64,000 nt of DNA from Manduca sexta (lineage: Eukaryota; Arthropoda; Insecta; Lepidoptera; Sphingidae): NCBI RefSeq assembly GCF_014839805.1, contig NC_051118.1, forward strand, positions 1,240,001-1,304,000, given 5' to 3'. Positions 1,947-35,489 of this stretch are shown here, piece by piece (the stretch's first letter is position 1; each line of letters begins with the position of its first letter). Both the position numbers and the translations under genes were made by a program. The notes below the pieces were generated by a model. It saw nothing but the letters and a program-made list of their open reading frames with translations, did not search any database and was not told where the DNA came from.

Positions 1947-2101
1947 AACCTGATCCTGTTAATATCAAATATTCTGGACAATTATCTATTCTGGATAAGG
2001 AACTATTAATACAATTTGAAGAGCCAAGAACGAGACGAGTCGGTTCGCCAAACCGGAATCATCTCCTTCAACAACTAATCAACATGAAGAATTTGAACTA
2101 A
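1947..2101 (+). CDS. Gene A: terminal coding exon of an 8-Cys-cluster paralogue
   Basis: A 3' splice site (tttgtttctag) is followed by an open stretch of about 50 codons ending in TAA at 2099-2101. The translation is nearly identical to the last exon of gene B at 18272-18429: both carry SGQLSILDKE, IQFEEPRTRRVGSPN and HLLQQLINMKN. The RTRR is a furin-like dibasic site. As in gene B the exon needs one base from the preceding exon (phase 1). No matching upstream exons are visible at 1-1946, so the rest of the gene lies to the left or this is an orphan duplicated exon. The flanking 3' sequence is duplicated as well. Confidence 0.6.
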
Positions 2102-2660
2102 TATTTTCAGACTTGACATTTAAGTACTTACAATTTTGTATTTTTATATTATATTTCGAATATAATATTTTGTATTATTTCGTTATTTTATTTGTTTTCT
2201 AAATAACCTAAGTAGTAAGTGGAAGCTTGCAGAAACTATACAATTTGAACCTTTCTGTAATATCTACAAAATATATAATGGTATATAAAAATGGTTCCAA
2301 CTTCCTTTGTACTTTTTAATCTATACTATTATAATATAACGCTAAAGAATTTGTTTGTCTGCATGTCTGAAAGCGATAAACTCAAAAACTACTCAACGGA
2401 TTTCGGTGTAATTTGGTATGCAGATAGTTTGAGACCCTGGGAAGGACATAGGTTACTTTGTATCCCGGGAAATTTATATCGGGACATTTAGTCCGGAAAA
2501 CTTTTACACGCAGGCAAAGCCACGAGCAAAAACTAGTTAAGATATTCTAATGCTAAGATTAACATTACTACAAAATTGATTTGTACGTGATTTAAATGTG
2601 TTTGATTTTCAAGTTAATTTTGAATTTGTTGTAGTTTTAACGGTTTTAGGATGCTTTGAA
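2102..2660. repeat. 3' flank duplicated with gene B (cf. 18430-18790)
   Basis: Downstream of the stop codon the sequence still aligns with the 3' flank of gene B, for example 'atataatattttgtatta', 'cttgcagaaa' and 'atttgtacgtgattta'. The alignment is interrupted by a repeat insertion at about 2318-2537 and ends at the palindrome at 2635. The duplication was therefore at DNA level, not a retrocopy. Confidence 0.6.
2318..2537 (+). repeat. Interspersed repeat, family 7 ('actcaacggattt')
   Basis: Contains 'aaaaactactcaacggattt' and 'gagaccctgggaaggacatagg', then 'gccacgagcaaaaactagt'. Related copies are at 3600-3775, 28722-28880 and 28985-29350. It interrupts the gene A/gene B flank homology, so it was inserted after, or lost from one copy since, the duplication. 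I assign no transposon class. Confidence 0.5.
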
Positions 2661-2695
2661 TGTTATACATTCAAAGCATCCTAAAACCGTTAAAA
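2635..2695. repeat. Perfect 29-bp inverted repeat, 3-nt loop
   Basis: Positions 2635-2663 are exactly the reverse complement of 2667-2695, with TAT between them. The left arm belongs to the gene A/B duplicated flank; in the gene B copy (near 18760-18790) only one arm is present. It would form a very stable hairpin or cruciform. Confidence 0.9.
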
Positions 2696-2699
2696 TATA

Positions 2700-3775: not shown

Positions 3776-3900
3776 TTATATCATATAGAAGTATGACACT
3801 TTTAAAGTATAAAAAACAGTTTTTCTGTGAATAAATATTTTCTTAAGACAAAAACTAACTAAATCGTCAAAATGGTATGTCAGTTTGTTTAAATTTAAGG

Positions 3901-4303: not shown

Positions 4304-7300
4304 ATGTTTCCAGGTCGTAAGAAGTTGGTTGCGCTGCTGTTGGTGTTGTGTTGTGTAGCGATGTTGGTGACTGTTTGGCTGCTTGACCAGGTCTGCGCGG
4401 CACTGGCTCTCCCTCCACCGCCCGTGAAAGACCTCAGCCACTTCAGGAGGGACCGCAGTCTCGCTCATTACCTTGATAATGTGTTAGTATTGAGGTAGTG
4501 GAGAGGTTATTTACGAGAAGAAATGTCTCATATGCAGGGTGATTTTGATATTGCGTGACTAAATGAAACCAGCGCTCGACACGCTGAGGCTTAGGTTGTT
4601 AAGTTTCATAGTGCTTATGCCTATATTTTACGGAAGAAGGGAGTGCCTACTGCCTATAGATTAGCATTGTGAACGATCCTCACACGCCTTAATATCTATG
4701 TCAAACACCATAAATTTCAATTCCAAGAATTCCAAGTCGGGAAAAGTGATATGGGGTTTTTCTGTTTATTATCAGCCCGGATTCTGGAATTCATTGGGAG
4801 TGGAACAGGCTGCCGTCACGACTGTCCACAGGTTCAAAACTCAAGGGCATGCACCTCTAAGTTCTCTATAAGTTGTGTGTTTTCTTTCTGAATTTTTGGT
4901 TGATGTAACTGTGAAGGAAAACATGCTCTACAAGAATTTTGAGGGTATGTGAAGTTTGCCAATCTGCGCTAGGCCACCGTGTTCGACTAAAACCTAACAC
5001 CTTTCGACAGTAGAGGAGACCCGTGCCCAGCAGAGGGACAATATATAATACAGGGTGGCGATACGCTCGCCCTATATAACAATAGGAAGGAACACACACA
5101 GTGGATACACTAGTTGCCTCTCTGATTACCCTTTCAGAGTTCAAAGACGTTACTGTATATAGGAAAAAGAAATTAACCCTTTTTATATCGAGAGTTCTAA
5201 AATACAAGTTTTGTTTTCAGACAACTGCTCATAGAACCATTATCGACGCACTGCAGTGGTGTAGAAGAGATTCCTTTATTAGCATTAGTGGCCACTTCAC
5301 CTTCACGCTACGACCACAGGGCGGTGGTCAGAGAAACATGGGGGAAGTACCAGCCGACATATTTCCTGCTAGGCCTAGACGGAGATCACGTCGATGAGGA
5401 TTTGGTAAATGAATAAGTTATTTTGAGACAATGTCCAAGGTAGATACTTGAATAAAACATTTTTTAAGGAATCAGTTGAAGAAGTATTTTTTTTTTATTT
5501 TCTAAATAAGTTGCGAAAGGTTGTTGGTTCTGGTAGGGCCCATTCGCCCGAAAAGCGACCGTGCACAAGATGTAATGTCATAGATGCCTATATGTGTCGC
5601 GATCCGGGAACAGCCTCAGTATATCCGGCTTCTAACAGCCATAATTGTGACTGGTGTGGGATAAACTTTCTTCAATATTCTATGGATCCCACTTTTACCA
5701 TCAGGAGCAGTGGGGTCACCTTCCCGTGGTCCAATTAATATTTTAATGAAATATTAATTGAAAAGGAGGCTTTGACAGCAAAATAAAATATACTCTGCAT
5801 TACAAGAGCAACCATAGCAACTAGCAAAGCCCTGAAATACCATCACTTGTTTTACTAAATTTGCATAAATAAAACACATACTTAAAAGGTCTTTTCAACA
5901 AAGGAGATCAAGTGTATTATCGTATATTACATTTATTATTTAACATGTTTCATGTTACACCTCCAGGTATCAACATATCTAGAAGCTAAGCTGTATAGAG
6001 ACATGATAGTGTATGACTTCCGTGACCACTACCAGAATCTGACGCTGAAGACGGCGCTGATGCTGCAGTGGACCCTGGAGAGATGTCCGCAGGCCAAGCT
6101 CCTTTACAAGATAGATGATGATGTGTTTCTCAATCCCTGGAGGTTGAAGGATGTCCTGAAAGATCACGAGGATGCGAAGTTGTTAGGTTTGTGTCATATT
6201 CTTTGTGTCGAATGTGAAAGTCGGCACAAAAAAGTGTTGGAAGTAGAGAAGGGTTCAGATCGTGTCGATTAACGTGAGATGATTACTCTTCAGCAGTCGA
6301 CACAATTATGCCGGCCTGTTGGAACCGGATATACACGGGCTGATCCCGGAACGCGTCACACGTGGGCGACTATAGTGGGTTTTACTCTTTGTGTTACCAC
6401 ATAAAAATTGGAATTGATATTTTGTGCAGGATACAAAATATCGAACAACTGGCTACATCGTGACGAGTATAACAAATGGTACATACCGCGGTGGCTGTTC
6501 CCGCGGGACGTCGTCCCGGAATACTTGAGCGGGCCGGGATATATTTTTAATAGTGAGTAGAATTGATAATGATTTATCAATTATGTAACTAGTTGATTTA
6601 TTCGTCGAAATCTAATGTGAATCTAAAATAAATCTCGTCGAAGTCCTGCGCCTGATCTCTCTCCGCTCATGTTGGATTGCCGTCTCACCGGACTATGAGA
6701 GTGAAAGAACAGAGAGCGCACATACTTATGCACTATAATATCTTCTGCGTACCTAGCTGATCTCCATTGAGATTGGCCGCTGTGGACGAAAATTCGGCTA
6801 GGAGGATTAATATTCATAACCTATAGCCTTCCTGGATGAATGGGCTATCCAGTACTTAAAGATTTTTTCAGTTCGAGCTAATAGTTCCTGAGATTAGCGC
6901 GTTCAAACAAACAAGCACTTCAGCTTTATATAATGGTATAGATACATCATATTAGCCCTATATTATATACTGTTCCACTGCTAGGCACGGGTCTCTTCTA
7001 CTACTAAAAGGAATTAGGCCTTAGACCGCCACGCTTACTGTGGATTGGCAGACTTCTCTTACCCTCAAAATTCCTATAGAGAACTTCTCATGTATGCAAG
7101 TTTTCTCACGATGTTTCCTTCACCGTTAAAGCAAGCGATAATTCACATATAACTTAAGTCAGAGGTGCCTGTCCTGGGGTTTTGAACCAGCGAACATTCG
7201 TCTCGGCAGTCCGTTCCAATCCCAAATAAGCTATTACCGCCATACATATGTTGTTAACCTCTTTTTATTTTAAAGGTCTTAAATTATCAATAAAATATGT

Positions 7301-9905: not shown

Positions 9906-9913
9906 CTTTCATC

Positions 9914-12649
9914 ATGCGAGCGAGGCTGTTCCTGTTGGCGCTGGTCATCCTTTGTCTGACTTCAGGATGCGTGGATGCTGGTAATGTATTTATATTTCTA
10001 CGTGAAGTAATATTATCGAAGTTCAAATTTAATGAATTTTATTGCAAAATTTAAAAGGTATGTTAAGTCTGCCTTCGTTGTAATACCCGCCTAGATACTG
10101 GTAAAATATAGCTTTACCATGCAATTAATGAATGAGTTTGTGTAATATTTACAGACTAAGATATTTTAATACTGCGAGGTCCTAGGCTCGATTCCGAGGT
10201 CGCAACATTTTGTTTAGAATTTCAAAAGTTATTTGCCCGGGATTGGGGCATCCAATGAGCTTGACGCCACGTAAACTGTTAATCGTAAAACCGAATAGGT
10301 TATACAATTTAGGTAAAAACGTGTGTTCGGATAACTTTAGAATGTAGTAGTATGTAAAGGAGAAAATAGAAGAAGAGAAGAATATTGTTTAAATAAGCGT
10401 AAAAATACAGTTTAATTTTTCTATACACCATCTACCTCAAACATCCACCAATTCTAGATTTCTGGTTCAACCGAATAACCCCTAAAAAAGAAGATCTGGA
10501 CCGTCTTAAACTTAAATGCATTCCGGGCCGCACCGTAATCCGCGTACAAACACAAAAAGTTCAGATCGAAAAGACCTCGAGCTCTGAAGAAGATGATTAC
10601 GTAGCAACTGACGGTAGAAGAACCCACATGAACTACCCTCCAAAAGACGATTTGTGTCAAGTCTGTGTGTGTTCTGTGGAGGGGAAAGACGAATACTGCA
10701 GCAAAAGACCAGCCATGAATGTCAACGAATGCATGAGGATGGCGATGCTGATGGACAGGTTTAAGAAGAATATACCTTTTGAACATGAGAGAGACCTTTC
10801 GTACAGGATTCGGAGAGGTGGGTCGGTGGCAGATACGAGAAATTCAAAGTGCAACGTGAGGTGGTGCAATGGTGCTAATCAAATATATTTATAGGGTTAT
10901 AAATTGACGTTAATATTTGCCGTAACTATGTCAATCGTTTTAGATGTACTGATTTAGAAGATATTTTAGGGAAAAAGTAAAGCGAATTCTCACCGTGTTT
11001 ACTTGGTAAAGTCTTTAAAATTATGCAATTTTATCCTTAATCTTTAGGCTAATTAAGTTCTTTTTACTCAACGCAAGCCATCTAACCTGACAGACTACAT
11101 CTGGCACAACGACGAGATCCCGTACGAGGCCAAAGCCCGTTGCAGACGCGGCCATTCCTACTACAGTAACAGCATTAATGCTAACGACACCGACATTGAC
11201 GTCGCCTCTGAGATCGAAAGTCTCCTTGACTATTCCAATCGGGACATCTGCTATTATTGCGTCTGCGCTGTCCACGGAAGAGGAGCAGGCTGCATCAGTA
11301 GAAGCCCTTGGTTCTGCGAATACTATAGGGTTATCAGAGAAGGCGGTGCTGCCAGGGATATGTACAGACAGACGTTCCAACAAGACAGGCCGACGTATTT
11401 CAGGCAGTTGTCGTATCGGTTGAGAAGGACCATGGATACTGGCATGTTTGATTTGCTAGAGACTGGTAGGTTTGGTTTGGATGAAATTGTGTTTTTTTGG
11501 TGATGTGTTTAGGTTTTTTCTAATTGTGTGGGGGATAGGATATTGAAAAATAAACTCTTAAAAATTAATTGTGTTAAATTGGAATTAATAAATAATGCTA
11601 ATTATTTGTGTTTCGAGAACAGATCATTTTGTAATTAAGCTCAAAAGGTAGTAGTGGAGGTAAGCAGGCGAATACGTCGTCGTATTCATTGACACTTAGC
11701 CCTATTTAGTAAAACTCGAATTTCATAACGAGCAATTACTTATAAATTTTGACTAACTTGAAAGAGAACCCGAGTTAGCAACAACTTCATAGACTAAGTA
11801 GACTGTCATTAGAATAATGAGTGACATTAGGAGGTTATTAAGCCAGCTTGGAATGTAACCAATATGAATAGCCAAGTAGACGATGCGAAGAAAATCGATC
11901 ATAATGAGATATACCTGTATATGCGATGATTGGATTTTAATGGCACCAATTCGTCGAAGATTTCAAATGATTCGACACAATATTATGTACTTCAATTTGC
12001 GAGGACACGAAGTCAAAGTTAAGACAACAAATCTGGTACTAAAGAGAGAAACACCACAAAAATAACAGCAAGAGTTGAACGAGAATGAAATGAAAACGAT
12101 CGCGGCATGTTTATATTATCAGTGTTTTAATATCAATTATTGAGATAATTAAAATAGGTATAAATAAAATAATTCCCCTTCCTCGCCACCGGAGGGAGAT
12201 TATTGTTTTTTATATGTATTGATATTTAGAAGATATATATGAAAAAGTAAGAGATACCTTTAAAAATGCACAGTATAACTATAATTATATTACAAAAATA
12301 AGTTATTATTGAATGTGACGTGAAGTGTTGTGTGACAAAGTGATTGTAACAAAATTAATTTTAGATTAAACAATTTAACCTCTAAAAGTTTTATTTAACC
12401 TCTGTCGTTTCCTGCAAGCCAATCTTGCTGTCTGCCAAATTATTCCAGATTTCTATATGTTATTGACTAAAGATTGGTCTTGCAGGAGGGGACACGTTGT
12501 GCTGTGGACATCCAGATGGTCATCGAAGAAACTTTCACAACCAAGTGAGGAACAAAATACGACAGCTGAAGAAGAAAGTTCCGAAGGAGAACCTCCTTTC
12601 TGGAGCACCTGGAGGAGATTATGTTGATTTCATTGTTAATAATGATTAA
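9914..12649 (+). CDS. Gene B short form ending at alternative terminal exon 12486-12649
   Basis: Exons 1-3 of gene B can also splice to 12486-12649 (acceptor 'tcttgcag'), in phase 1. This exon adds about 54 residues (GGDTLCCGHPDGH..., a basic KIRQLKKKVPK stretch, then GGDYVDF) and stops with TAA at 12647-12649. The total is 999 nt, about 332 residues: signal peptide plus two cysteine modules, without the eight-Cys module or helical region. A poly(A) signal lies 218 bases downstream. It may be an alternative 3' end, or a separate small gene with gene B's later exons belonging to another start. The shared phase makes both joins possible. Confidence 0.5.
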
Positions 12650-15600
12650 TGCGATGATGCAATGGAGGATTTTAATGATGATATAATTGATTTTATGGTT
12701 AACAATTGAAGATATAGAAATGAAATTGCAATGGAAATTAAAATAACGAAGGGAAATTTAATTTTATAGTTTGATGTTTTAAATGAAATTGTTTCGACAG
12801 TAAAAAAAATGTGTTATTACTTTTTTTATTATGTTAAAGTGAAGTGCCGTGTTTTGTATTTTTATAAATAAAATATTTCTACGTATTTGTTGTGTATATT
12901 TTACTGTTACATACTTACGACAGATTTCAACATAAATAAACAACAAAAAACATTAATAGATAACGTTAATATTGGGGATAGAAATATGGAGACGCCACAA
13001 ATACATGAAATTATTTTTGAATGGAGTTTTAGGGAAATATGAAATACGAAATAATCTGTTGTGGGAGAACAATTTTTCAAATCTTTATAAATTACTAATA
13101 ATGTTGTGATAGTATACTTTTTTTTAACATCAATGGATGTCGTAGATGAGTTATTGCACCGATGATAAACCGCACGCCTTTATACTGCACCACCTCACGT
13201 TGGCATTTTTTATTATGATTTATCCGCACTGATTTTGAACACTTTTTTCCACACTTGTGTATATTTATAAGGATAATATTCAGTTGTATGGCTCATGCGA
13301 TTTGTTTTAGTTACTATTTAAGGGTAATTATAAGGGAAAACTGTATGACAGACTATGAAGAAAGTTACTTTTTAATTTGGGATGGCTTAATAAAACTACA
13401 ATGAAATTGATGTGAAATTATGAGACGATTAATAAGAGACAGCGTCCGTTAAAAACATAAGAAAAAAAAAATTAAGCTGATTCATTTACATAATAAAAAA
13501 ATTGTCAGTGTACTTATTTGAAATAAGATGCAATTAGTAATAGGAATATGTTTGAAAATTTATTTCAACATTGAAGTAAAGCAATAGTATTTAGTAAAGC
13601 TGATCGATTTGCTTTAAATCAACTTCACATTACAGTGGGAACTGCGCCTGGAGGTCCTAAAAAATGTATACCTTTTGTATCGGAGTATACTGATTGCACT
13701 GACGGTGAGTCATACATAATTATTTTAAAGGTTAAAAGTTTTCATTACAGAATTTACGTAAGATTTTTGCTAGGTAAGTTAAAGTGAGAGAGTAATGCTA
13801 CTTTATTTGTTAAATATGGAAAGAATGTATTTGCGAACTGGTGAACATAGGCTTTACTTTGCCTGAGATTAATATTTTTATTGTAGCTTTCGTAGAGATT
13901 ATTGGAGGACCAAAAAATATCCATTCTCCAATGTTTTCTTCATCCTCAATACTTTTCTTTTAAAGTGGAGATTACACCGATGGGTTTCATAAAATTGCGG
14001 TGTCTGGGTTCCTTGGAACCCATTCGAAAATTTGCATATTTTCGGCCTTAAGCAATTTCTGTGTGCCATTTGTCATTTTAAAGCTAGTAAGTTGAAGTGG
14101 CAATCGCTTGGCTACATATATCGTAGAACAGATAACCGCTGGAGTAAGCGTGTTCTAGAGAGGAGACCGCGTCTTGGCCAACGTAGCGTGGGACGCTCGC
14201 TGGCCAGATGGCGAGACGACTTGTACAAGAGGTCCAGAAGCGACGAGATGCATAAAGCTGCAGACCGGTCTCTGTGGCGTACCTTGGGAAAGGCCTATAT
14301 CCAGCAGTGGACTGCAACGGGCTGACAATTTGATGATTTGACATTTTCACGATTTTGTTCTTAGAGAACCAATGTTCGGGATGTACGAAGTGCACGTGCA
14401 CTGTAGAAGGCACCTGGTCTTGTACGAATGTCAATAAATGTGAAGACATGTTCCGGAGCACTCCTGTTGATGACAATGACATTGAGACTGCCTTGCTAAT
14501 GATGGATAGTGGTGAGTTAACATGATAATCATTTTACTTTATATGTTATGAAGATGTTATTGATGACATAGTCGCAGAATACGGCCCGCTTCAAATAGGT
14601 CGATCTGGAAATCTTTGGGGGAGGCCCAGGTTTAGCAGTGAACATCCGGCGGCTGATGATGATAATGATTGATGACATTTTTGTTTATTCGGAATCCGCA
14701 AAGTTAGCCTATTGAATCTGATGGTAGGGCTATGGGTTCAGTCAGAATGTCGACTGTCGAGAGATCACCTATCGATAGTCAACATATTTATGCCTATTAG
14801 ACCATCAACATTCCATTGAGGGATGTATTTCTCTACCTGCATGAGTATTTTTATAAATTTATGATATAACGCATCAAGTTACGTGTAATGAATCTCTATG
14901 GTTCAAATAATAGAAGAGCTATCTATTTATGTTATTTATTATGTACAATTATCTTTATGCATGTTTGAAAGTTTCTATATGAGAACCTTTTGACACTTCC
15001 AGAGATGAAAAGAGAAAGAAAGAAGAAGGCTACGTCTTCAAATTTCCCGTTCGTGCCGCAGCCGACGACACAAAATAGTGTTTTAATAGGTAGCCCATTA
15101 ATTTTTATAGAAATCTATTTCTTTTTTTATTAAATTTTCTTTGTTCAGTCTAGTTACTTTGTCTAGCGCTTTATTTTGAAATAATATTCTTTTTGTTTTA
15201 TCTTTTTCAGGTTATATTCTAGCTGTACCTAAACACCGTTAATCGCACTGTATTTTTTATTTAACATGCACTTTTTTTGCACAAAGTTCTTTTATTTTTG
15301 ACTTACTTCTTTAAAAAGGTGAGTGTTAATTTTTTTATATTAAAGTTGAGAAAGATATTATATAAGTTAATGTTTCAGAGAAAGATGATAATCATAAAAT
15401 CAATATAGCCGATGAAATCATGGATTTAATGCGACCCAAGAGATCCGTGGATAGGCTTAAAGAAAATAATAATCATTCAGTCATGTTTTATCATACATTG
15501 GATGAAGTTAATGAAGGTAATGCTGTTTTGTTATAACATTGAATTATATTCTTTAATATTTTTGAAAAATAACGTAAGACAGTTAATTTGATAAAAGCGG

Positions 15601-18790: not shown

Positions 18791-18847
18791 AACATAAAAA
18801 TAATACATAAGTGGAATATATTATAACACTATGGAATATTATATTAG

Positions 18848-19150: not shown

Positions 19151-19232
19151 CATATCTCGTAATGTATTCTGGCCACAAATCTCAATTATTCTTACAAAAA
19201 GATTTTCACGGGGAAATTTAATCAATACTTAC

Positions 19233-22200
19233 TTTTTTGTTTTTCACGTGTTTTGGACTTCTTCGCAGCTATAACTGGTTTAACTTTACCCCTTAAATAC
19301 TTAGGAAGTATGTTTTTCATATGACTTTTATAATTGTCATCTCGTGCGAATCTTTTATCTCTCGGAACTAAGTTCAATTTACTTTGCCATTTCCTCATGG
19401 TGTCCTCAAATTCCATATATCTCCGCCTGGTAAGTTCATCAATCTTCTTCTTTGCCAATCCTTTTACTATCTCTTTCTTTGGCACCTTTTTCTTTAACAA
19501 GCCAACGATATCGTTTTTGGACGATCTTAATATCTTTTTAAGCTTCTTTAAAAATGATTCTTTTTGGACCTGTTTAGTCACTTCCACATTCTTCAGGTTC
19601 TTGATTTGTCTATTTTTATGTAAATTTATGATAACTTTGACTTTTTCGTTTATTGCTTTCAGCCCTTTGTTTATTCTATCCATAATTTCTCCACCTAAGT
19701 TACCTTCTATTAATATCATTCTTCGGTTATAAGCAAAGTCTAATAATGCCAGTGCATCGTTCATTTTGGTGATATCGATTGATAATATGAGATGCAGTAG
19801 TTTCATGGCATGTAATCTATCGTGGATTGGGGTTTGTGCTACAATATCTGTCATTCTGGGCCATTCAGTACCAATTTTCTTTATATCATTGGTTAAATTG
19901 TATTCTGGGTCAAATACTCTCAGTCCTATTACTGAGAATTCGTCTATATAATTGTTTTTAATAACTCTTTGAATAATTTTTCTTGATGTTGGCGAAAGGG
20001 AAGCCAATGCGTTACTTTCAGGCAAATTTTTGTCAATAACTTTTAAAATATTAACCATTTCAGTAACTAAGGTTTTTTTAGTTGCATCATTCTTTGTATC
20101 GGCAGGCGTACGTCGACTATTTAGGTTTTCAACATCCGATTTCTTTTCTTTGTAATTCAATTTAGCTTGGTTTCGTACGTAACGTTTCATGGCACGCAGT
20201 AATATTTTTAAGTCTACAGGAATATGCGCTTCTCCTTTTAGTTTTTGTATACCAGCAATATCTCTTATAACCTCATAAATATCTCGTTTCAGTTTTAATA
20301 AATATTTCTGAAGTAAATTCTTGTCGCTTCTTCTAAATTCATTTTCTAACTCCGGCGCTATTTCAAAGTTGTAAATAGATATAGTTGAGTTCGTATCATT
20401 ATACCTATTTTCTTTAACACTTGTTTCAAACGAATTGTTATAAGTTCTCATAATTTTTATTAAGTTTTCGCTAACTCGGAGTAATTCTTCCAATTCTTTT
20501 TGTTTATCGTTAATTATATTACTTAATGGTAGCAGGACATTATTTCGTAATTCATTGACGTTGTTGGTAATGTTTTCTTTTTCTGTACTTATTTTTTTAA
20601 TCGAGGTATCTCTTTTCATGATATTTTTGAGCCAAGTACAAAATTATCAATGTAATCTAATGCAGTATCTATCATGTTTATTTTATTGTCAGTTTCCGTG
20701 TAATCTGTTATAATATAAATATTAAATTGAGTAATTTTTTAAAACTAAATACAAAGGAGACTCAGTCCCCACAAGCTCGGGTCGGATGTTATATAATAGA
20801 TACACATAAGATTTTTAAGTATGGATTGAGGTATATGCCCCTGTAGTATATAGGGTCCTTTTGACATTGCGTTTGTGAATGAACCCCCGTATTTATACTC
20901 TCGAAAATAACATTTTATAAGAAGTTATTCGAACTGTAGATGGAATATAAACAAGTGTAAGTTTTAAACAAAATAAGCATTAATAAAACGCAGTTTAATG
21001 TTTTGCGTCCAAATATCAATACTCTTAGAGAATACAGTCAGATACATCCGTTCACTCGCCATATTCACACTAAACTACAAAAGGACCAAGCAATCTGAAA
21101 AGCAAAACCGAGATGTTTGATGCTAACATTCATTATTCATGGCTGATTTGGAATATTGTTAGCAGAGGTAAAAAAGAGTTGTGGTTTCATTTATTAACGC
21201 AATATCACAATGACCCTGTCTAAGACTTAACAACGTACCGGTCCAGTTAGTTGTAAAATTTCTTGATTCTTTTAGCTGATTCTAGTAAATCAATAACTAT
21301 GTCTGTTTCTTCAGCTGGTTTAGGCGGAGCATAATTGTTCTCCCATTCTTCATTCCCAGGTGTGTTAGTAGTAATGTCTGTTGCATTATCTTCATCAAAT
21401 ATCATGTAATCAAATGTTGTAGAATCATTGTGTTTATCTAGAGGTTTTCTACGAGAGTAAGTTTTGCTATCAACTGCGATGTTGTTTAGCACTTCTTCAA
21501 AATCTAGATAGTCTACTCTAGCACTAGTTTCTGGGCTTGTTTTGGTTCGTGTGGTGGTTTCTGTAAGATGAAGTGGATTTTAGTGCAGTTATAAGATTTA
21601 ACATAACAATATTTTATACGGTAAGTAAGGTTCGTTATATTGCCATTGGCGTTTGATTCCTTTACACCTGTTGGTAATTGGAGTAGCGTTCAGATAGTGT
21701 GTCGACTGACGGAATATGGTCATCCCTCGCGAGTCTACGTAGTTATGCTGGCCTGTGTGGATTTAGATATACACATGCTGTTCCCGGAACGCGACACATT
21801 GATGTGAACCACTAAGCGGGATAAAGATAGTGAGATGAAATTTTACGTTTAAGATTTAGTTTGTTTATACAATTTATAATAGTTATAGTAAATTTAGGTG
21901 CCTTGAATTTATAAAAAAAAATATTATAATAATTGTCTTACCTGTAAATGAAGTAATATTATTTATATTTTCAGTAGCCGATGAGATAGCACTGTTTTGT
22001 GTTGTTTCTTTTGAGTTTAAAGGTGGTACTCCAAACATCCATTGTGAAATTTGTGCAAAACTTATTTTATTCGTGGTCAGTTTGTTTAGATTTTCCTCTG
22101 TGTTCCGTTTTGTCCTCTTGTTAGTTTGAGCTGTGAATTTTTTGGGGTTTCTTATATTTTATTAGTGATTTTATTTAAGCCATGACAAAAGCGTGCGCAT

Positions 22201-24864
22201 TATTATTCGTAAAATGTGTTATTGGCACAATAATCCTTATAATATTTACTCTTAATTTAGAAGATATTTGTTAAAGAGAACTCCACTGAGAAACTATTAA
22301 ATCCAAAATAACAACACACAATTTTTCCAGCTTTAAGGGTTTGTTTCTTTCTGAGTAAATACTATTATTAAAGTCACACTAATAAAATGTATGCTCTCAA
22401 ATATCTGGCAAAATATGGCTGTTCACTATGAAAAAGGCTCTAATACTTGTTTATTATATTATTTTACTAGCTGACCCGACAGGCGTTGTCCCGTCTTAAC
22501 TATGAATTTGCAGCGCGCATTCTGTCAATCGCTGACAGTTATTTCAAATAATTGACAGTTCTATAAAATTAATATTAAGTTTTCTTAAATTTTCAAATTT
22601 TCCGCGCAATAACAAACACTACAAAAAAAATAGTGAAGTCGGTCCTGCCGTTCACGCGTGATGGCGTGACCAAGGGAAATAGGGATTCATTTTTATATAT
22701 AGATTTAAATCATGGATAAACCTACCGTTCATAAGATTCTCAATGATGAAGACTAGCATGCGATGGTCGATGTCGGTGACGACGTCAGCTCGGCACCGGC
22801 TCACCGTGGTGCAGTTCCAGCTGCCGCTAAGGTCACAGCTGCAAGTCTTGCAACCGACACATATGTTTTCTGAGATTGAAAATATAAGAATGAACTTTCT
22901 CTTAAAATTAAGTCCCGAAAAGGAAATGTTATAATACCAGCTGTCCATTGCTCAACACGGGCCTCCTTAGTCCTCTACTATTGACAGGGTTTTGCCTTTA
23001 GACCACCACGCTCGCTTAGTGCGGATTGGTAGACTACACACACTTTCAGATAAGTTACAAAGATATAAAGAATATTTTTTAAAATAAGGGTAAACATTAA
23101 AAAAAATGAAAATTTAAAAGGTTTCTCTCCGGCGGGGAATCGAACCCCGGTCTCCCGCGTGACAGGCGGGGATACTGACCACTATACTACCGAAGACTTG
23201 TTAAATGAGACATATTAAATAATCGTATCACAATGCAGCCACAAGATGCAATTCGTATTACAAGATTACATAATAATTTTATACGGCAAAGTGAGATTAC
23301 TGCATTTAATGATTAGGGAGTAGGGGCAAGATAGATCGACAGACGAGAGATCACAACTCAGGCAATTTTATTTTATTTTATTATGCCCGCCTGTTTGAAG
23401 CCAGATATACACGGGCTGATCCCGAAACGCGACTAACTTATATAGGCCAGTATGGAAGGTCTGAGCAGATATAAATATCCTATGTACAATCATCTAGGAG
23501 TAGACCGAAGGATCTAATATTACTTACCTTTAGTGCAATCCGTATATTGAGATACTAGTGGTATACATTCAGTGTTGGCATCAGATGCTGTAACAAATAT
23601 GATAATTTCAAATGATTAATTTGGTAAAAATCCTCATTAATTTTCCACCATTTTAAGATTTCATTATTAGTCTCAGAAGGTATCACTATAAAAGTCTGCA
23701 TTCATTTTGTGCTAGGCATCCGTAAATCCTAAATTATAGTCCTTAAAGCTTTAAGTCTCTAAATACGTCTAAGAACATCTAGATTGTGAATAACCTTATT
23801 ATTATTTTTGCCGCTGTATTAATATATAAATTTGCATGCTGTGGTCTCCTATAATTGAAGAGGCACGTCACATTGCTAATTGTACAAATACTACGACATT
23901 GTATTTATTATAAGCCGTGCATCCTACGTTGGAGGTCCTTAAATAAATCAATAAATAAATCACCTTTCTCCATAAACCGGTACATCAATCGATCTACTTC
24001 CTCCCTCATCTCATGATTATCAACTTCCTCGATCTTTTCTTCATGCAGTATCTCATCTGTTTCCACGTAGTACTCGCACCTTGCCTGGTTCATCTGCAGG
24101 CAGTCTTCCCCATAGCATATCTTACAAGGCTCATTGCTTCGACGATAGGGCTGATATTGAAATGAGAGCTCGGTTCCTGGAAGAAGGTATGCGTATTTTG
24201 AATAGTTTAGTATCTGAGAGTAAAGAACATTGCCAGGGTTAGCTTCAGGGTCTACGTCAGTTTTGTAGGTGTCAATGCGAGTTTCAGAGTCCGTGGCTGT
24301 GTCAATATTAGGGTCTGTCAGTGTGACGTGTAATTGGACAATGGGCAATGGCATTCGGCAAAGGGGTAAAAAGCATCAGCACACAATACGCTGTACACGA
24401 TTTACATATTACAAAGGCTGCAGCAGTAATTGCATAAAACACAATTATAGTTAATAAGAGCTAAGCTAAGCTAACTTCTATTTGGCTGTTTTCCGCAAGT
24501 CTTCGGTAGTATAGTGGTCAGTATCCCCGCCTGTCACGCGGGAGACCGGGGTTCGATTCCCCGCCGGAGAGGTTTTGTTTTATTGATTTTTGCATCCTGA
24601 TATATTTTGGTTCTCATAATTGTAATATAAGAATATAATAATCTTGGTATCACTGATATGAATCAATCAGAAATACAAAATTTCGCAAGAATATTTCAAG
24701 TTTGGTACAATATATTAGATCAGACAAACATTAAAGCTGGAATTCGGCAAATGATACTTCCTGCGGATGATAAACAGAAAACAATGTAAAATGCAAGTTA
24801 TTCCAAAAATTGCAGTAAACTTACCGGACACGAGCGAACAGACGAGCAAGCAAGCACGCAACAT
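19233..24864 (-). CDS. Gene C: paralogue of gene B, eight-Cys secreted precursor (partial, indels)
   Basis: Exons, in transcript order: 24864-24825 (signal peptide MLRACLLVCSLVS), 24314-23928, 23587-23528, 22869-22726, 22150-21942, 21560-21239 and 20704-19233. Exon 2 has C-x2-C-x4-C-x7-CEYY, as gene B exon 3. Exons 3 and 4 give the eight-Cys module (CIPLVSQYTDC; then ENICVGCKTCSCDLSGSWNC). Exon 5 has RTKRNT and exon 6 SRRKPLD, aligning with gene B's RPKRSVD exon. Exon 7 is a 1.47-kb Lys/Asn-rich helical exon with a DRLHAMKLL block. The frame is continuous only if single-base indels are allowed near 22138-22143, 21255-21261 and 20624-20628, all A/T runs. The last exon ends at a strong donor (A|GTAAGT at 19232, phase 1); ignoring it gives a stop at 19222. 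The terminal exon was not found. Function unknown; likely secreted. Confidence 0.66.
20705..21238. other. Gene C intron 6, no recognised feature
   Basis: AT-rich intron between exons 6 and 7, with a good donor (CCG|GTACGT) and acceptor (ataacag). No repeats recognised. Confidence 0.4.
21672..21829 (+). repeat. Family 4 repeat in gene C intron 5
   Basis: 'gtgtcgactgacggaatatgg', 'atgctggcctgtgtgg', 'gctgttcccggaacgcgaca', 'accactaagcggg'. Confidence 0.55.
22465..22706 (+). repeat. Interspersed repeat, family 5
   Basis: Begins 'actagctgacccgaca', carries 'atgaatttgcagcgcgcatt' and ends 'ccgttcacgcgtgatggcgtgacc...gggattcatttttatatatagat'. A second copy is at 27844-28083. Resembles 3' ends of non-LTR elements, but no ORF is left to prove it. 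Confidence 0.55.
22932..23052 (-). repeat. SINE family 2, 3' fragment
   Basis: 'ttgctcaacacgggcctcc', 'gaccaccacgctcgcttagtgcggattggtagact' in part: the tail half of family 2, reversed. Confidence 0.5.
23125..23196 (-). tRNA. tRNA-Asp (anticodon GTC)
   Basis: 72 nt folding as a standard cloverleaf. The acceptor stem TCTTCGG pairs with CCGGAGA and G is the discriminator; the anticodon loop is CTGTCAC and the T arm has GGTTCGATTCC. A run of four T follows on the - strand. It lies inside gene C's intron between exons 3 and 4, on the same strand. The sequence equals the three other copies at 24500, 25832 and 27545. Confidence 0.95.
23325..23475 (+). repeat. Family 4 repeat, diverged
   Basis: 'agatcgacagacgagagatcac', 'tatgcccgcctgtttgaag', 'gatatacacgggctgatccc', 'ggccagtatgg'. 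An 'ttttattttatttta' stretch interrupts it. Confidence 0.5.
24500..24571 (+). tRNA. tRNA-Asp (anticodon GTC)
   Basis: Same 72-nt sequence as the copy at 23125, opposite strand, followed by TTTT. It lies in intron 1 of gene C, antisense to it. Flanks do not resemble those of the other copies. Confidence 0.95.
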
Positions 24865-25831: not shown

Positions 25832-25903
25832 TCTTCGGTAGTATAGTGGTCAGTATCCCCGCCTGTCACGCGGGAGACCGGGGTTCGATTCCCCGCCGGA
25901 GAG
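25832..25903 (+). tRNA. tRNA-Asp (anticodon GTC)
   Basis: Same 72-nt sequence as at 23125 and 24500, followed by a TTTT run six bases on. Between the divergent starts of genes C and D. Confidence 0.95.
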
Positions 25904-29125: not shown

Positions 29126-29156
<31 letters not shown>

Positions 29157-32100
29157 ATAACCGTTATAGAAACAAAAACTACTCAACGGATTTTAACGAA
29201 ACTTGGTACAATTATTTGTCATACTCCTGTGCTGGTTATAGTATACTTTTCATCACGCTACAATTAATAGGAGCAGAGCAGTGAAGGGAAATGTTGGGAA
29301 AACGGGAGAAGTTACTCCATTTTTAAGCTTCCGTCGCGTGCAAGCTTAATGGTTAAAGCTACACAGAAATCATGTATGACGGAAATGTTCTCCTTAAAAT
29401 TATGTAAAAATATCCCACCACAGCATATGTCTATCTTTTATGGTTGACTCACAATAACACGTGTAACTCCCGATAGCTTAGCAGTTCGGAGCTTTCTCAT
29501 TATATTTGTCTACTCTTACGTTTATAACACTCTCAGTCATCCCTAATTATAAAAGTTAACATTATTAAATATTCCATAAAAAGAATCATAGAAATCGGTA
29601 TAGAAACACCAAAGTTATACATGAAATACGCTAATAATAAGCCATCATGCGTGAATACTGAATCATGCTATAAGGATTATTTTGTATATGTCTATCTGCC
29701 ATAAATATTGTAATAAAGAAAAGAAAATTGTTAACTNNNNNNNNNNNNNNNNNNNNNNNNNNNNNNNNNNNNNNNNNNNNNNNNNNNNNNNNNNNNNNNN
29801 NNNNNNNNNNNNNNNNNNNNNNNNNNNNNNNNNNNNNNNNNNNNNNNNNNNNNNNNNNNNNNNNNNNNNNNNNNNNNNNNNNNNNNNNNNNNNNNNNNNN
29901 NNNNNNNNNNNNNNNNNNNNNNNNNNNNNNNNNNNNNNNNNNNNNNNNNNNNNNNNNNNNNNNNNNNNNNNNNNNNNNNNNNNNNNNNNNNNNNNNNNNN
30001 NNNNNNNNNNNNNNNNNNNNNNNNNNNNNNNNNNNNNNNNNNNNNNNNNNNNNNNNNNNNNNNNNNNNNNNNNNNNNNNNNNNNNNNNNNNNNNNNNNNN
30101 NNNNNNNNNNNNNNNNNNNNNNNNNNNNNNNNNNNNNNNNNNNNNNNNNNNNNNNNNNNNNNNNNNNNNNNNNNNNNNNNNNNNNNNNNNNNNNNNNNNN
30201 NNNNNNNNNNNNNNNNNNNNNNNNNNNNNNNNNNNNTGAGGAGACCTTTTACATAGATCTTCAAAATTAAAGTCTATTTTTAATATACAAAGTTTGTTTC
30301 GGTGTTTATGTAAGGAGACAAAGATTTTAATACGGGTGAATTTTTAAAAATGTTAATGACCTTTTTCAGGGATACTAGAATCCGTCGCGGCATTGGACTT
30401 GGTGACGTATTTTTCCGCGACGCCACTAGAGACGGTAAGCCCTTCTTTATTTCTTACATCTGAATTGTCAGATAGGTCAAACTCATTACATAGCACATTA
30501 CGCTTGCTGAAGATATCTTCTATCTGACAAACAATTAATATTTACCCGCAATAGTTAGTAATTTTTTTTTAAGTTACACTTATACTACTTTCTTGTTTCA
30601 ACTTTTTGACTATACACAGTACACAATAGTCTTAATTTATCTAAGTCCGCACTTTAAGTAAATAACTAGTATAAGGGCGCAATGTTTAGGAATACAATCT
30701 AGTTTTATGCTTGTATATTTTATAATTAGCTTTAATTTTGATTGTAATCTGTTTTGCGTTTTAATTTTATTAAATAAAATATACAATACCAATCATTATG
30801 GATGTTTTCAGTATTCAACAAAAATATGCCGGAACAATGCAAGCCTTTTGAGTCGAGTTTCAGCGACGGATGCCCACCCGGTATGTATGTTTTACAATAC
30901 AATTGTAATTTCGAAGCATTATCCTAACATTTGTTATATTTATTGAAGAGCTGATATTAATAAAAAAAAACCCGCCTGATTAAGAATTTTAGCGCTAAAA
31001 TTCTTAACCAGGCGAAAAACGGGAGAAAAATAAAACACAACAAACCGCGATAGAATCCAAAAATTAGTTTAATTTCAATGTCTAACATTCGCGTAAACAT
31101 AAGAAATAATTATATGATGAACTCTTCATTAAACGTAATTATTCATATGATAAAATTTAAATAATAAACAGGGGCAACAATGGAGCTAACAGTTTTTCAC
31201 ATTGTTTTTTGGTAGGGATCAGTCTTCAAAATATTTTAAACATATGCATACATATGTTGTACCGATCCTACATAGAGGCGAATAATAGCAGGATGATTAC
31301 TAAATCTAAGGTTTTTTTGTAGAGGACTGGTGCATCGGCTGTACGGTGTGTGACTGCGACGCCAATGGCCGCTGGGACTGCCACGTGCTCAGCTTCTGCG
31401 ACAGTAAGATCTACAACACATCCACCATTAACCATTTTATGTTTGCTTTCCTTTTAGTTCCCTAAGGTTTCATGAAAGAAATGTATCTTTCCATAGTAAA
31501 TTGCAAAACGTATTTTATGCCATAGAAATAAATTGTTTACAGAAACTACAAGGAAACCTTCAAAGAAACGCAAAGGTAACTACAGAAGGACAGTCATCAG
31601 AAAAACACAAGTGAAACCTAACAACACAAGTAAAGCCGTCACCATCAAGCCGATAGCTAAACCGCCGCCAAAGATCATTAGAAAGGTTATCAAGAAACCA
31701 GCAATCCTCAATACTCGGACGAAAAGACAGCCGCAAACACACAAAAATATCAATAAAAAAGATCCAAAAAACATTAATAGAAGCAAACCTAATAAGGTAA
31801 TAAGGAGGAAGGTTCCTCAAAAGAAAATCATCAAGAAAGATGTAGCAAGGAAGCCTATTAAAATAAACAACGGGCCAAACCAAATAGTATTGCCTACTAC
31901 TCCGAAGTTTGCTCAGGCTGTAGTTCAACAAATGCTAAAAGCTGTCCAACAACTGATGAAGAATGATGTGAAGAAAGGAAATTCATCGAAGATCTTAAAA
32001 GCAGTTGATAAGAAACGGCCAAATACACAGAAACAGGACAAGAAGGCTCTGATGAAAAGGTTTTCGACTATAATTAGACAAAGCGCGAAACAGATCAAAG

Positions 32101-35100
32101 TGAATACAGATAATGTTAATAAGAAAAAAACTGCGCGAACTAAGAGAGAAGTTGATGATAGCGAACATTTGAAAGTCATTAGCGTCGTACCAATTGTTAA
32201 AGGTTTGTTCTATTTAAAGTATAATTTAAATTGACTTTGTAAAATAAGTGTATTTAAAACAATATTCAAAATGAAGTAAATTTTATGAATTTTAAATGAT
32301 GGTAAAATTATTGCTTTCAGAGAACGTAACCGTGTCAGATAAAATAATCCCTATAAAGGAAGAAGAGACATCCACTGAAAATCCAAGAAAGCTTTTAAGT
32401 ACCTTCAGCCTTCCAAATGATACTACGACTAGTCCCATTCCCACCACTACTATTACGACAGAACCAACGTTCTTCTATGAAGTGACAGATGATCAAACAA
32501 GCATTAAAATAGATTCGACCACTAATACACCTTTAATGACGCATACGCTAAAGCCAGAAAACAATGTAACTCTGCATAATACCACAAGTGAGAAATGGAG
32601 ACAAATTATGAACATCACGAAATATGTTCCAGATTTTAAAATTGCTACTGAAAATATTATACATTTGTTAAACAATATGACGGGTGCCAATGATTTAAAA
32701 TTCAAAAATGGTACCAGATAAAACTTTTAAAAGATAGGGAGAAATATTTCAAAATAGGACAATTTAAAGAGAAAGAAATTAATATGTTCTATAATAACAA
32801 CAAATCTAGAAATAATACATTCGTTCATTTAAAGCCAAATGTTTATTCTCAAGATATAAAAAGAAAGATCGATATGCCAAAGAGAAATAAAATAAGGAAA
32901 ATTATTTTAAGTCCAAGAATAATTAAAGATAGTGTAAATACAACATACCTGAACAAAAAAGTCAGTAATTTACAAAGCATATTTAAAAATATATTGAAGG
33001 AATTTAATAAGAATACAACTAAAACAAAATCAGGAAGCAAAAAATTATATGGTCAAATACATGAGAAATCTATTTAATAATTTACTACGTAGAGGTAAAT
33101 CCAACATGACTAGATCAAAAACTGAAATACTTCTAGAAAAGCAATACACTATTAACATGCTCTGTGAAAATATTGGCTCCTGCAATCTAAATCCTAGAGA
33201 TAGGAGACTGTTAGACGCCAAAGTGACGCAACTAGGCGTTGAAACTGACAAGGTTTTGAAAATAATAAAAATAATTAAAGGTCTATTACATCTCGTCGAT
33301 ATTCCAACGGACAATCAAATTATAAACACCATAAATAAGCCAAAATCTAATTTGAAAGATGACGTTAATAAGCTCAACATCATACTACGTGATTCATACA
33401 TAAACGATTTAAAACCAAAGTCACTATCTCAGACACAAGCAACACAAATTGACTACATAAAGAAAAACACCCAAGAGTTCATCCACGCAGTGGCAAATTT
33501 TGGTAAAATACTCAACGAAATCATATCACTTTTAAAGAAAAACAACAGAAATGTTAAAAAACGTAAAGTCAACGAGGTGCAAGAACATAAATTTAGCAAC
33601 TCTGAAGCGTTTCAAAATTTAAGAGATTTATTAATAAGATATGATATTACACAGAACTCATTTTTTAAGAAGATCTACGATTATATGACTGTGTTTGAAC
33701 TGAAATTAAAAAAGGACAATCAGAAGACAGCAAGCGTTGACAGAGAACTAAAGAATATGGCTAACATAGATAACTTTTCGAGAAATATAGTAACAAATTT
33801 ACGAAAATTGACACAACTTGCTCAAAATATAAATTCTCGGACGAAGAGAGAGGTAATGAGAGACAATGACGCTGTTGAATATTTGTTGATGTTAATGGAG
33901 TACTTGTTGAAACAGAACTATTCTTTGGATGCAGCACCTGGTGAGTATCCCGTGAAAATAAAGCGCAATCAGATTTGACAAAGAGGACGAGTAATGAGTT
34001 CATTGTGAAATTAAGCTTGCGAAACACGAATTCTGTGTTTGTATATCGCGGTAATTTCTGATATAATTTATCGATCCAGTATTAAAGTAAGTATGGTAGG
34101 TTGTAATGTGTAGATATATATTTATGTACTTATATATACATTAAATATAATAAAACTTGAAAGTTACCATTTAGTTTTTATAAAATAGCTACTAAATATA
34201 ATCAAATATATTGTAATTTTTTTGTCCTTAAGTAGTATTTTATCCAATTGTAAACTATACCTTTGCAGGACCACATTACATAGGCAGGCAAATACATATA
34301 CTTTTCAATAAAAATACTAAGAGTTCTAATTTTAGCAACAATCTAGAATAGACAGCAAAAGATATTGTAGTTTAATAATATTTACTTGTCGGAAATAAAT
34401 AGCATAAAGTCACGGCACGACGTGACTCGAACTGACGCCAGTACTCGAAGTGAGAGGTGTCTATTGAAACTAAATATTGTTAGTGTAACGCCTGTATACA
34501 CTTGCAATATTCATTTCTCAATAAAGTTCACCAGACCGGAAAATATCTAGAACTTTTAGCAATACTGTCTTACGTTTCAGCAAACGACGGCATCGATATG
34601 CTTATAGAAGCTATAAAAAACGCTCCGGATATTAAACCGATAAAGAAAAAAGTACTAGAGTACACACCAGCTATATTTCCAACAAGAACCGTTCCTGAAA
34701 AAAATAAAAGAGGGTCAAAGGCAAGGCGAGAAAGACAACTACAATAAAAAAACAAGTTGTAACATCGAGGTTAGATAATCCAAAATTTGTAGAGGCTGTC
34801 GAGGAAGATAAGGATTATGAAGATAAATTCATGTATACGAGACGTGCCGTTGATAGTGAGAGCGAAGGAATGGAAAATAATGTTAATACTGTTACCAGCA
34901 AAATTGATTCTATCCCTGAATATTTAAAAGAAAGCGACTCAGAAGCAATAAATGATAATAAAATAGAAAAATAGAAATAAACGATAACAGCGAAAGTAAA
35001 TTAGATAAATCAAATACAAAAGAAAGAGTCCAAGAAAAGAAATATGACATATTTAAGGCTGATCTTGGTGACTTTATTGTTTTCGTTTCTTCGACAGCTC

Positions 35101-35489
35101 CACCGACGCATCCTACTGCACAAGTTACTGCTAAAGCAACTGTCACAGTTGCAAAAACTACAGAAACGTCACCAGAAATTGCTGACAAAAAGATAGAGTG
35201 GATCGACGAGAGTTACGAGAAAGATATCAAAGAAGAGCAGAAAGCAGAAACTACGAAACCGCCTGTAGTGGTAACGAGAACTAAAAAGGCCACTAGTAAA
35301 GAAGAAAACATAAGTACCATGACAAAAGAAATAAAGACAGAAGTAAAGAAGAAGACTACAAGGGCAGAAGATGTGGCGTATAAAAAACAAATGGATTTAC
35401 TGAACTCACTAGACTACGTGACAGAGAAAACAGAATTCGACATAGAATCAAAGGACATAGAAGATCCATTCCCATCTTATTTTGGTTAA
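26348..35489 (+). CDS. Gene D: third eight-Cys secreted precursor (apparent frameshifts)
   Basis: Exons 26348-26387 (signal peptide MLPLLLLLQAYTA, phase 1, same 40-nt length as gene C's), 30370-30434, 30812-30880, 31323-31403, 31543-32202, 32321-33940 and 34581-35489. Exons 3 and 4 make the eight-Cys module (CKPFESSFSDGC; then EDWCIGCTVCDC, GRWDC, CHVLSFC). Exon 5 is very basic (KPSKKRKGNYRR...) with RTKRQ and RTKREV. Exon 6 is Lys/Asn-rich with an NPRDRRLLDAKV block and RTKREV. The last exon is acidic and Thr-rich, with YTRRAV. Likely secreted and processed. The frame breaks by one base near 30408-30412 (exon 2), 32704-32708, 33039-33044, 34698-34745 and 34967-34971. These are in or next to A/T runs, and coding-like sequence continues after each. 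Either assembly error or a decaying gene. Intron 1 contains the 500-N gap, so exons could be missing. Confidence 0.62.
26509..26700 (+). repeat. Interspersed repeat, family 6
   Basis: 'gtagccagtgtaactactgg', 'tttgtaattcaagacattggatggtgtttctac' in part, 'cttaccatcaggcgaacagcaag'. Lies in gene D intron 1. Confidence 0.6.
27545..27616 (+). tRNA. tRNA-Asp (anticodon GTC)
   Basis: Same 72-nt sequence as the other three copies. It is followed by only TTT, so its terminator is the weakest. Lies in gene D intron 1, same strand. Confidence 0.94.
27844..28083 (+). repeat. Interspersed repeat, family 5
   Basis: 'actagctgattcgacaaaac', 'atgaatttgcagcgcgcatt', 'ccgttcacgcgtgatggcgt', 'ttcatttttatatatgtagat': second copy of the 22465-22706 element. 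Confidence 0.6.
28722..28880 (+). repeat. Interspersed repeat, family 7, diverged
   Basis: 'aaagggaaagtttatgaac', 'aggatgaaatttgacagacgg', 'ggctactttttatcccg' resemble the 2318 and 3600 copies in order. Confidence 0.4.
28985..29350 (+). repeat. Interspersed repeat, family 7, with (CTGT)n microsatellite
   Basis: A CTGT tract at about 29119-29156 is followed by 'aaaaactactcaacggattt', the family hallmark, and ends near 'cgtcgcgtgcaagc'. Confidence 0.55.
29737..30236. other. Assembly gap, 500 N
   Basis: Exactly 500 N, a conventional scaffold-gap size. It lies in gene D intron 1, so any exon there is unseen. Open frames drawn across it are meaningless. Confidence 0.98.
30973..31014. repeat. 42-bp near-perfect palindrome
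   Basis: Two 21-base arms (cgcctgattaagaattttagc and its reverse complement) with one mismatch and no loop. Followed directly by a repeat shared with 38845-38935. Possibly the structured end of a mobile element. Confidence 0.85.
31020..31112 (+). repeat. Repeat shared with 38845-38935
   Basis: 'gggagaaaaataa', 'aaccgcgatagaatcc', 'tttcaatgtctaacattcgcgt' match 'gggagaaaataa', 'aaccgtgataaaatcc', 'tttcaatgtctaatgttcgcgt' at the second site. Confidence 0.6.

What the first reader, a model, noticed from the sequence alone, without database searches (positions are those of the whole stretch)
1947..35489. Cluster of paralogous secreted eight-cysteine/Lys-Asn-rich precursors, family not recognised
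Genes B (+), C (-) and D (+), plus the terminal exon of gene A, share architecture. They have a 40-67-nt signal-peptide exon, a small exon with C-x9/10-C, an exon with C-x2-C-x2-C-x-C-x7-C-x5-C, exons with RxKR sites, and a 1.4-2.3-kb Lys/Asn-rich helical exon. Intron phases are almost uniformly 1. The genes are in mixed orientation within 35 kb, implying local duplication and inversion. The domain set matches no family I can name. Large, fast-evolving, processed secreted proteins in a tandem cluster could be structural (silk, cuticle, egg), reproductive or immune.
Basis: partly seen in the sequence, partly recalled or inferred. Interest (0 to 1): 0.88.

Follow-up and report, generated by a model that had tools for sequence, protein, structure and literature searches.

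The report
Moth precursors with pacifastin-like modules
A hawkmoth chromosome carries three neighbouring genes, with relatives in many moths and butterflies and no named family, whose predicted secreted proteins join small cysteine-rich modules, one of them likely related to insect pacifastin peptides, to long helical chains and would likely be cut apart at conserved basic sites; their function is untested.

Summary
The window is Manduca sexta. Gene B is confirmed exactly: its spliced exons, minus one cassette, equal NCBI LOC115456048 isoform X2 letter for letter. C's long and last exons equal LOC119190588, whose database model lacks the N-terminal half read here. D matches O3G_MSEX002951; its signal-peptide and first cysteine exon most likely lie in an assembly gap. 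'Gene A' is a decayed relic of a tandem duplication that also copied a galactosyltransferase. B, C and D have orthologs in many lepidopteran species, linked two by two in ten listed ones.

Shared descent is shown only for the cysteine region. The eight-Cys module has a pacifastin-like core (profile score 28.5 against at most 18.5 in 40 Cys-preserving shuffles; Pacifastin_I below cut-off in 7 of 24 members), but breaks the pacifastin spacing and lacks its reactive-site residues. The six-Cys modules do not pass the same control. D's eight-Cys module is near-invariant (28 of 40 columns; 21 of 888 elsewhere). Best reading: secreted, likely convertase-cut precursors whose modules likely bind extracellular partners. 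Expression, cleavage and function are untested. New variant of a known kind.

The parts
9914..9980 (+). Gene B exon 1, predicted signal peptide
   Evidence: Spliced model equals P0001
10458..10817 (+). Gene B exon 6C_a: six-Cys module starting C-x-PG-R-T, ending in RIRR; cassette
11094..11465 (+). Gene B exon 6C_b: second six-Cys module with RLRR; cassette, absent from isoform X2
12486..12649 (+). Gene B alternative last exon (likely 321-aa short form)
   Evidence: In frame after 6C_b; same stretch in Operophtera P0009
13636..13704 (+). Gene B C-x9-C exon (first two Cys of the eight-Cys region)
14365..14511 (+). Gene B eight-Cys core exon, pacifastin-like
15003..15089 (+). Gene B linker exon 1
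15379..15516 (+). Gene B linker exon 2 with conserved RPKR
15655..17991 (+). Gene B long Lys/Asn-rich helical exon
18272..18429 (+). Gene B last exon with stop
24825..24864 (-). Gene C exon 1, predicted signal peptide
   Evidence: not in the NCBI model P0053; a short start, supported only by the ortholog layout
23964..24176 (-). Gene C four-Cys exon (start revised from 24314)
   Evidence: Ortholog comparison
23528..23587 (-). Gene C C-x9-C exon
22726..22869 (-). Gene C eight-Cys core exon
21942..22130 (-). Gene C linker exon with dibasic site
21247..21560 (-). Gene C exon that is internal in orthologs but runs into a stop here (alternative end, or frame-broken)
19233..20704 (-). Gene C long Lys/Asn-rich exon, frame-broken near its start in this assembly
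   Evidence: the stretch from 20619 on, with the last exon, equals P0053
18703..18785 (-). Gene C last exon
29737..30236 (.). Run of N; the missing signal-peptide and six-Cys exons of gene D most likely lie here
30370..30434 (+). Gene D exon with RIRR
   Evidence: Matches P0021 residues 84-105
30812..30880 (+). Gene D C-x10-C exon
31323..31403 (+). Gene D eight-Cys core exon, near-invariant in orthologs
31543..32202 (+). Gene D basic Lys-rich exon with RTKR
   Evidence: Contained in P0021
32321..33940 (+). Gene D long Lys/Asn-rich exon, two frame breaks in this assembly
   Evidence: open in P0021
34581..35489 (+). Gene D last exon, two frame breaks in this assembly
   Evidence: matches the end of Trichoplusia ortholog P0023
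937..2235 (+). 'Gene A': decayed copy of the end of gene B (pieces of the long exon, then a copy of the last exon)
2579..2662 (-). Decayed copy of gene C's last exon

Best explanation
Genes B, C and D are three linked genes, with orthologs in many moths and butterflies, that share an eight-cysteine region with a pacifastin-like core and encode predicted secreted precursors likely cut at conserved dibasic sites into small disulfide modules and long helical chains. Shown here: the exon structure of B, orthologs, linkage in several species, conserved cysteines and R-x-K/R-R sites, and cassette use of B's six-Cys exons in annotated models. Inferred: a furin-type convertase cuts after RIRR, RPKR and RTKR; the small modules then act as extracellular binding units and not as canonical serine-protease inhibitors, because the residues of the pacifastin reactive site are not kept. 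D's near-invariant eight-Cys module would have one conserved partner, and B's cassette exons 6C_a and 6C_b would change which companion module is shipped. The Lys/Asn-rich helical chains would be released as separate mature chains or hold the modules in an extracellular layer. Tissue and partner are unknown.
For: B's chain equals a database protein exactly; C's long and last exons equal P0053. Orthologs: 20, 32 and 15 proteins, all the named ones lepidopteran. Pacifastin-like core: hhalign probability 90-93%, score 28.5-30.4, 0 of 40 Cys-preserving and 0 of 40 full column shuffles reach 28.5; Pacifastin_I in 7 of 24 members, best E 0.024, other families in 1 each; 5 of 6 PDB chains listed for C's module are pacifastins, best E 0.36. 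Processing: conserved [KR]R pairs 6 in B (shuffle mean 1.1, max 4), 3 in D (0.5, max 3), 4 in C (0.7, max 5); Arg also at P4 in 92-100% of sequences at two sites of B, three of D and one of C. D module: 28 of 40 columns invariant against 21 of 888 elsewhere. Cassettes: among 19 B models 10 carry 6C_a alone, 3 carry 6C_b alone, 6 both (read; one search counts two cut models otherwise). Insect pacifastin precursors have the same plan: signal peptide, domains split by dibasic sites, splice variants, clustered paralogs (PMC2689174, passages).
Against: No family reaches a curated cut-off. In the PDB profile search fibronectin and granulin rank just ahead of the first pacifastin. The six-Cys modules do not pass the Cys-preserving control (7, 12 and 8 of 40 shuffles reach the score); D's six-Cys module lists no pacifastin in Pfam or PDB and 6C_a none in Pfam. 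The dibasic counts of C and D do not exceed the most extreme shuffles. The long exons are not detectably related between the genes. The structure models are poor overall (mean pLDDT 46 and 48). Secretion, cleavage, binding and expression were not measured.
Confidence: 0.5

Rival explanations
1. They are true pacifastin protease-inhibitor precursors that have drifted in sequence: the modules block serine proteases of the haemolymph or of pathogens.
For: Pacifastin-like core, C-x-PG-R-T start of 6C_a and 3 of its 4 listed PDB matches pacifastins, best E 0.57, precursor plan as in PMC2689174; 'cryptic' pacifastins missed by profiles are described (PMC13388995, abstract and passages).
Against: Thr after Cys5 in only 3 of 24 eight-Cys modules; the next residue (P1 place) is D, E, N, Q, S, T, G or P in 17 of 24; Cys spacing outside the published pattern.
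Confidence: 0.2
2. They are structural proteins of a secreted layer (silk, cuticle, egg coat): the helical Lys/Asn-rich chains form the material, the cysteine modules cross-link it, and the dibasic sites are incidental or mature the chains.
For: Long helical Lys/Asn-rich exons; secreted layout.
Against: No repeats of a material type were seen in the readings; D's eight-Cys module is far more constrained than its long exon; no tissue data either way.
Confidence: 0.2
3. They are precursors of peptide hormones or growth-factor-like ligands.
For: Convertase-type sites, small disulfide modules, near-invariant module in D.
Against: No match to any hormone family; very large companion chains are unusual (general knowledge).
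Confidence: 0.07
4. The cluster is decaying and C and D are pseudogenes in this species.
For: Frame breaks in C and D exons of this assembly; gene A and its C neighbour are clear relics.
Against: D's long exon is open in P0021; C and D orthologs are open in many species; the breaks sit at or next to A/T runs in an assembly whose size matches a Nanopore-based one.
Confidence: 0.03

Closest known systems
Pacifastin-related precursors of insects (Pfam PF05375, Pacifastin_I)
   Same: Signal peptide, small cysteine domains split by dibasic sites, splice variants, clustered paralogs (PMC2689174, passages); core C-x2-C-x-C-x3-G-x-W-x-C in the eight-Cys module.
   Different: Eight Cys instead of six, or six with a long first loop, or four (gene C); no curated-score match; reactive-site residues not kept; joined to long helical chains.
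'Cryptic' pacifastin-like domains (PMC13388995; abstract, outline and passages seen)
   Same: Pacifastin-like scaffold below sequence detection, in multi-domain extracellular proteins.
   Different: That set required the six-Cys scaffold and a structure match; neither could be tested here. The words Lepidoptera and Manduca do not occur in its main text.
von Willebrand factor type C domains
   Same: C-x2-C-x-C motif and small secreted domains (recalled).
   Different: No VWC or SVWC model listed; one of 24 members touched a 'von Willebrand factor-like' model (PF23244) at E 0.48; the adjacent Cys-Cys pair recalled for VWC is absent from the eight-Cys and D six-Cys modules.

Membership tests
Pacifastin family | Match to Pfam Pacifastin_I at the curated cut-off | tested here: not met
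   Best E 0.024, in 7 of 24 eight-Cys members; not listed for whole proteins
Pacifastin family | Cys1-x9-12-Cys2-N-x-Cys3-x-Cys4-x2-3-G-x3-6-Cys5-T-x3-Cys6 | tested here: not met
   Core Cys2 to Cys5 spacing fits, but Cys5-x5-Cys6, two extra Cys and mostly no Thr after Cys5; pattern from PMC2689174
Pacifastin family | Sequence relation to pacifastin beyond Cys spacing | tested here: met
   Eight-Cys module: 0 of 40 Cys-preserving shuffles reach the score. Met for this module only; the six-Cys modules did not pass
Pacifastin family | Bridges Cys1-4, Cys2-6, Cys3-5 | not testable with these tools
   Hint only: gene C's module lacks the places of Cys1 and Cys4 together; Cys4 is missing in 12 of 12 orthologs with the module
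Pacifastin family | Canonical reactive site between Cys5 and Cys6 | tested here: not met
   Thr at P2 in 3 of 24; P1 place variable, often acidic or polar; D has H-[I/V/L/T]-L-S-F in 24 of 24
Pacifastin family | Dibasic sites between domains | tested here: met
   Conserved RIRR and RPKR in B, RIRR and RTKR in D, REKR in C; the excess over shuffles is clear in B only
VWC domain family | Match to VWC models | tested here: not met
   No VWC or SVWC model listed

The most novel reading that the evidence does not exclude
A class of extracellular ligands of moths and butterflies derived from pacifastin: a reshaped eight-cysteine module, frozen in gene D and diversified in B and C, is freed by convertase cleavage from Lys/Asn-rich helical prodomains, with cassette splicing choosing the companion six-Cys module, so that an old inhibitor fold became a binding or signalling peptide.
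Probability: 0.15. Interest if true: 0.7.

Novelty: new variant of a known kind. Interest (0 to 1): 0.5.

Why it matters
Three large predicted secreted genes found in many moths and butterflies have no family name; database entries call orthologs 'uncharacterized' or give chance names such as 'reticulocyte-binding protein homolog' or 'protein PFC0760c-like'. A near-invariant 40-residue cysteine module inside otherwise fast-changing precursors is a small, clear target for structure, cleavage and binding tests. If the pacifastin link holds, it shows an inhibitor scaffold re-used with its reactive site lost.
Full report
What was checked. The finding names genes B (+), C (-) and D (+) and a terminal exon A between 1947 and 35489. 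The window lies at G000:C4:1240001-1304000 of an assembly of 470,002,661 bases in 4056 contigs; the contig is 10,917,074 bases long, the length listed for P0001, Manduca sexta LOC115456048. Size and scaffold number are close to JHU_Msex_v1.0, a Nanopore-based assembly (470 Mb, 4,057 scaffolds; PMC8022704, passages).

Gene B. Nine exons with GT-AG ends and 8 of 8 introns in phase 1 give 1244 aa. Dropping exon 11094-11465 gives exactly P0001 (1120 aa). A short last exon (12486-12649) follows the two six-Cys exons in frame (321 aa); a similar stretch occurs in Operophtera P0009, so a short form is likely. Among 19 B models (P0016 left out because it lacks the N-terminus) 6C_a occurs alone in 10, 6C_b alone in 3 and both in 6. 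Two of these six are cut at the N-terminus (P0002, P0012); I read this, while the automatic count puts those two under 6C_b.

Gene C. The NCBI model (P0053, 489 aa) equals the window's long exon from 20619 on plus the last exon and holds no more. The window shows upstream a signal-peptide start, a four-Cys exon, the two eight-Cys exons and linker exons; orthologs such as P0054 and P0055 carry the whole chain. Comparison with P0054 moves the start of exon 2 to 24176. The exon at 21560-21247 is internal in orthologs but runs into a stop here; it may be an alternative end or frame-broken.

Gene D. P0021 (O3G_MSEX002951) matches the D reading at 99% over the whole query and supplies a signal peptide and a six-Cys module that have no match in the window; they most likely lie in the 500-N gap. 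The long and last exons are frame-broken here at or next to A/T runs; the long exon is open in P0021. I name no correction.

Gene A. Beside the terminal-exon copy (1927-2235, 84% to 18252-18566) there are only remnants of B's long exon (blastn 937-1224 against 16035-16379, 67%; tblastn 1050-1166, with a stop) and a decayed copy of C's last exon (2662-2579, with a stop). In the 20 kb upstream of the window five family proteins find nothing more except a galactosyltransferase copy at window positions -2886 to -990; a second copy lies at 5222-6548. So a block of galactosyltransferase, B and C was most likely duplicated in tandem and one B and C copy decayed.

Orthologs and linkage. Three protein searches returned 20, 32 and 15 proteins. 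Equal contig lengths in these lists link two of the three genes in ten species beside Manduca: B-C in Dendrolimus; B-D in Colias croceus, Euphydryas and Amyelois; C-D in Trichoplusia, Vanessa cardui, V. tameamea, V. atalanta, Arctia and Chrysodeixis. This is read from listings, not from fetched genomes. The Diatraea model P0005 fuses the galactosyltransferase to B, which agrees with their neighbourhood here.

What is shared. Between the three M. sexta genes blastp finds only the cysteine region convincingly. In the eight-Cys alignment A5 (24 members chosen by me from the B, C and D sequences in hand, 4 of the C and 3 of the D orthologs among them) ten columns are invariant, seven of them Cys, and the eighth Cys is kept in at least 90%. 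The long exons do not beat reversed or heptad-block-shuffled controls, so common descent of the long exons is not shown. The plan (late long exon, phase-1 introns) is shared.

What the module is. No Pfam or NCBIfam family matches at cut-off. Below cut-off, PDB phmmer with C's module lists 6 chains, 5 of them pacifastins, best E 0.36. The A5 profile lists 34 chains; 5 of the first ten are pacifastins, the best at E 0.026, just behind fibronectin and granulin at 0.024-0.025. Pacifastin_I is hit by 7 of 24 members, best E 0.024. Profile comparison with seven solved pacifastins gives probability 90-93% over 16-21 columns; 0 of 40 Cys-preserving shuffles reach the score. The six-Cys modules do not pass that control: 7 of 40 (6C_a), 12 of 40 (D) and 8 of 40 (6C_b) shuffles reach their scores. 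6C_a begins C-x-PG-R-T as pacifastins do, and 3 of its 4 listed PDB matches are pacifastins, best E 0.57; Pfam lists none for 6C_a, and D's six-Cys module lists TRIM5-type chains and no pacifastin. 6C_a and 6C_b match each other at 53-55% probability. Gene C's module lacks the places of the first and fourth Cys together, which are bridged in pacifastin (PMC2689174, passages); the fourth is missing in 12 of 12 orthologs that show the module, and 7 of these have exactly four Cys upstream of the eight-Cys region, the other five having extra Cys mostly in the first 20 residues. That is one inherited event and only a hint.

Not a standard inhibitor. The pacifastin reactive site lies between Cys5 and Cys6. 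Here the Thr after Cys5 is kept in 3 of 24, and the next residue varies (D 5, T 3, V 3, E 2, N 2, S 2, one each of G, I, K, L, P, Q, R); in D the loop is H-[I/V/L/T]-L-S-F in 24 of 24. Therefore I do not file it as pacifastin.

Processing. Conserved [KR]R pairs (in at least 80% of sequences): 6 in B against a column-shuffle mean of 1.1 (max 4 in 300); 3 in D against 0.5 (max 3); 4 in C against 0.7 (max 5). B exceeds its control; C and D do not exceed their extreme shuffles. Several sites have Arg at P4, the furin-type pattern (recalled). B also keeps 6 glycosylation sequons (shuffle mean 0.5, max 3); C and D keep none at 80%.

Selection pattern. In D 28 of 40 module columns are invariant, against 21 of 888 elsewhere (there counted only where at least 20 of 24 rows have a letter); in B 12 of 39 against 79 of 1081 (at least 16 of 20 rows). 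So D's module is under far stronger constraint than the rest of D, while B spreads its constraint. By exon in B, mean identity to orthologs is 65% for 6C_b, 54% for 6C_a, 41% for the long exon, 36% for the eight-Cys exon and 25% for the first linker. Against Diatraea P0005 the galactosyltransferase pieces match at 52-57%, 6C_b at 69%, 6C_a at 48% and the long exon at 40%; it is not shown that these galactosyltransferases are the same copy.

Structure. Models of P0001 and P0021 have mean pLDDT 46 and 48. D's six-Cys module (block means 66-85) is a small beta fold, and late helices in both (many blocks 70-87) form bundles. Foldseek finds no PDB match at E 0.001.

Reading. The likeliest account is a set of secreted, convertase-cut precursors that deliver pacifastin-like modules no longer built as inhibitors, together with helical chains. 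Secretion, cleavage, binding and tissue are inferred. Published work describes insect pacifastin precursors with a similar plan (PMC2689174, passages) and 'cryptic' pacifastins missed by profiles (PMC13388995, abstract, outline and passages). None of the 13 gene identifiers queried is in the held papers.

Noticed in passing
23125-23196 (-), 24500-24571 (+), 25832-25903 (+), 27545-27616 (+): Four tRNA-Asp (GTC) genes with identical sequence; two lie inside introns of gene C.
   Followed up: partly
18703-20704 and 21247-24864 (-): The NCBI model of gene C (LOC119190588) lacks its signal peptide and cysteine exons, most likely because of frame breaks in the assembly.
   Followed up: yes
5222-6548 (+) and 20 kb upstream locus L002: Two beta-1,3-galactosyltransferase copies flank the gene A relic; Diatraea P0005 is annotated as a fusion of this enzyme with gene B.
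   Followed up: partly
53455-54717 (+): Open frame of 420 aa, Thr- and Glu-rich with a hydrophobic stretch near its start; no Pfam or NCBIfam family.
   Followed up: no
59298-62670 (-): Open frames that read like a retrotransposon (integrase- and gag-like stretches, judged by eye).
   Followed up: no
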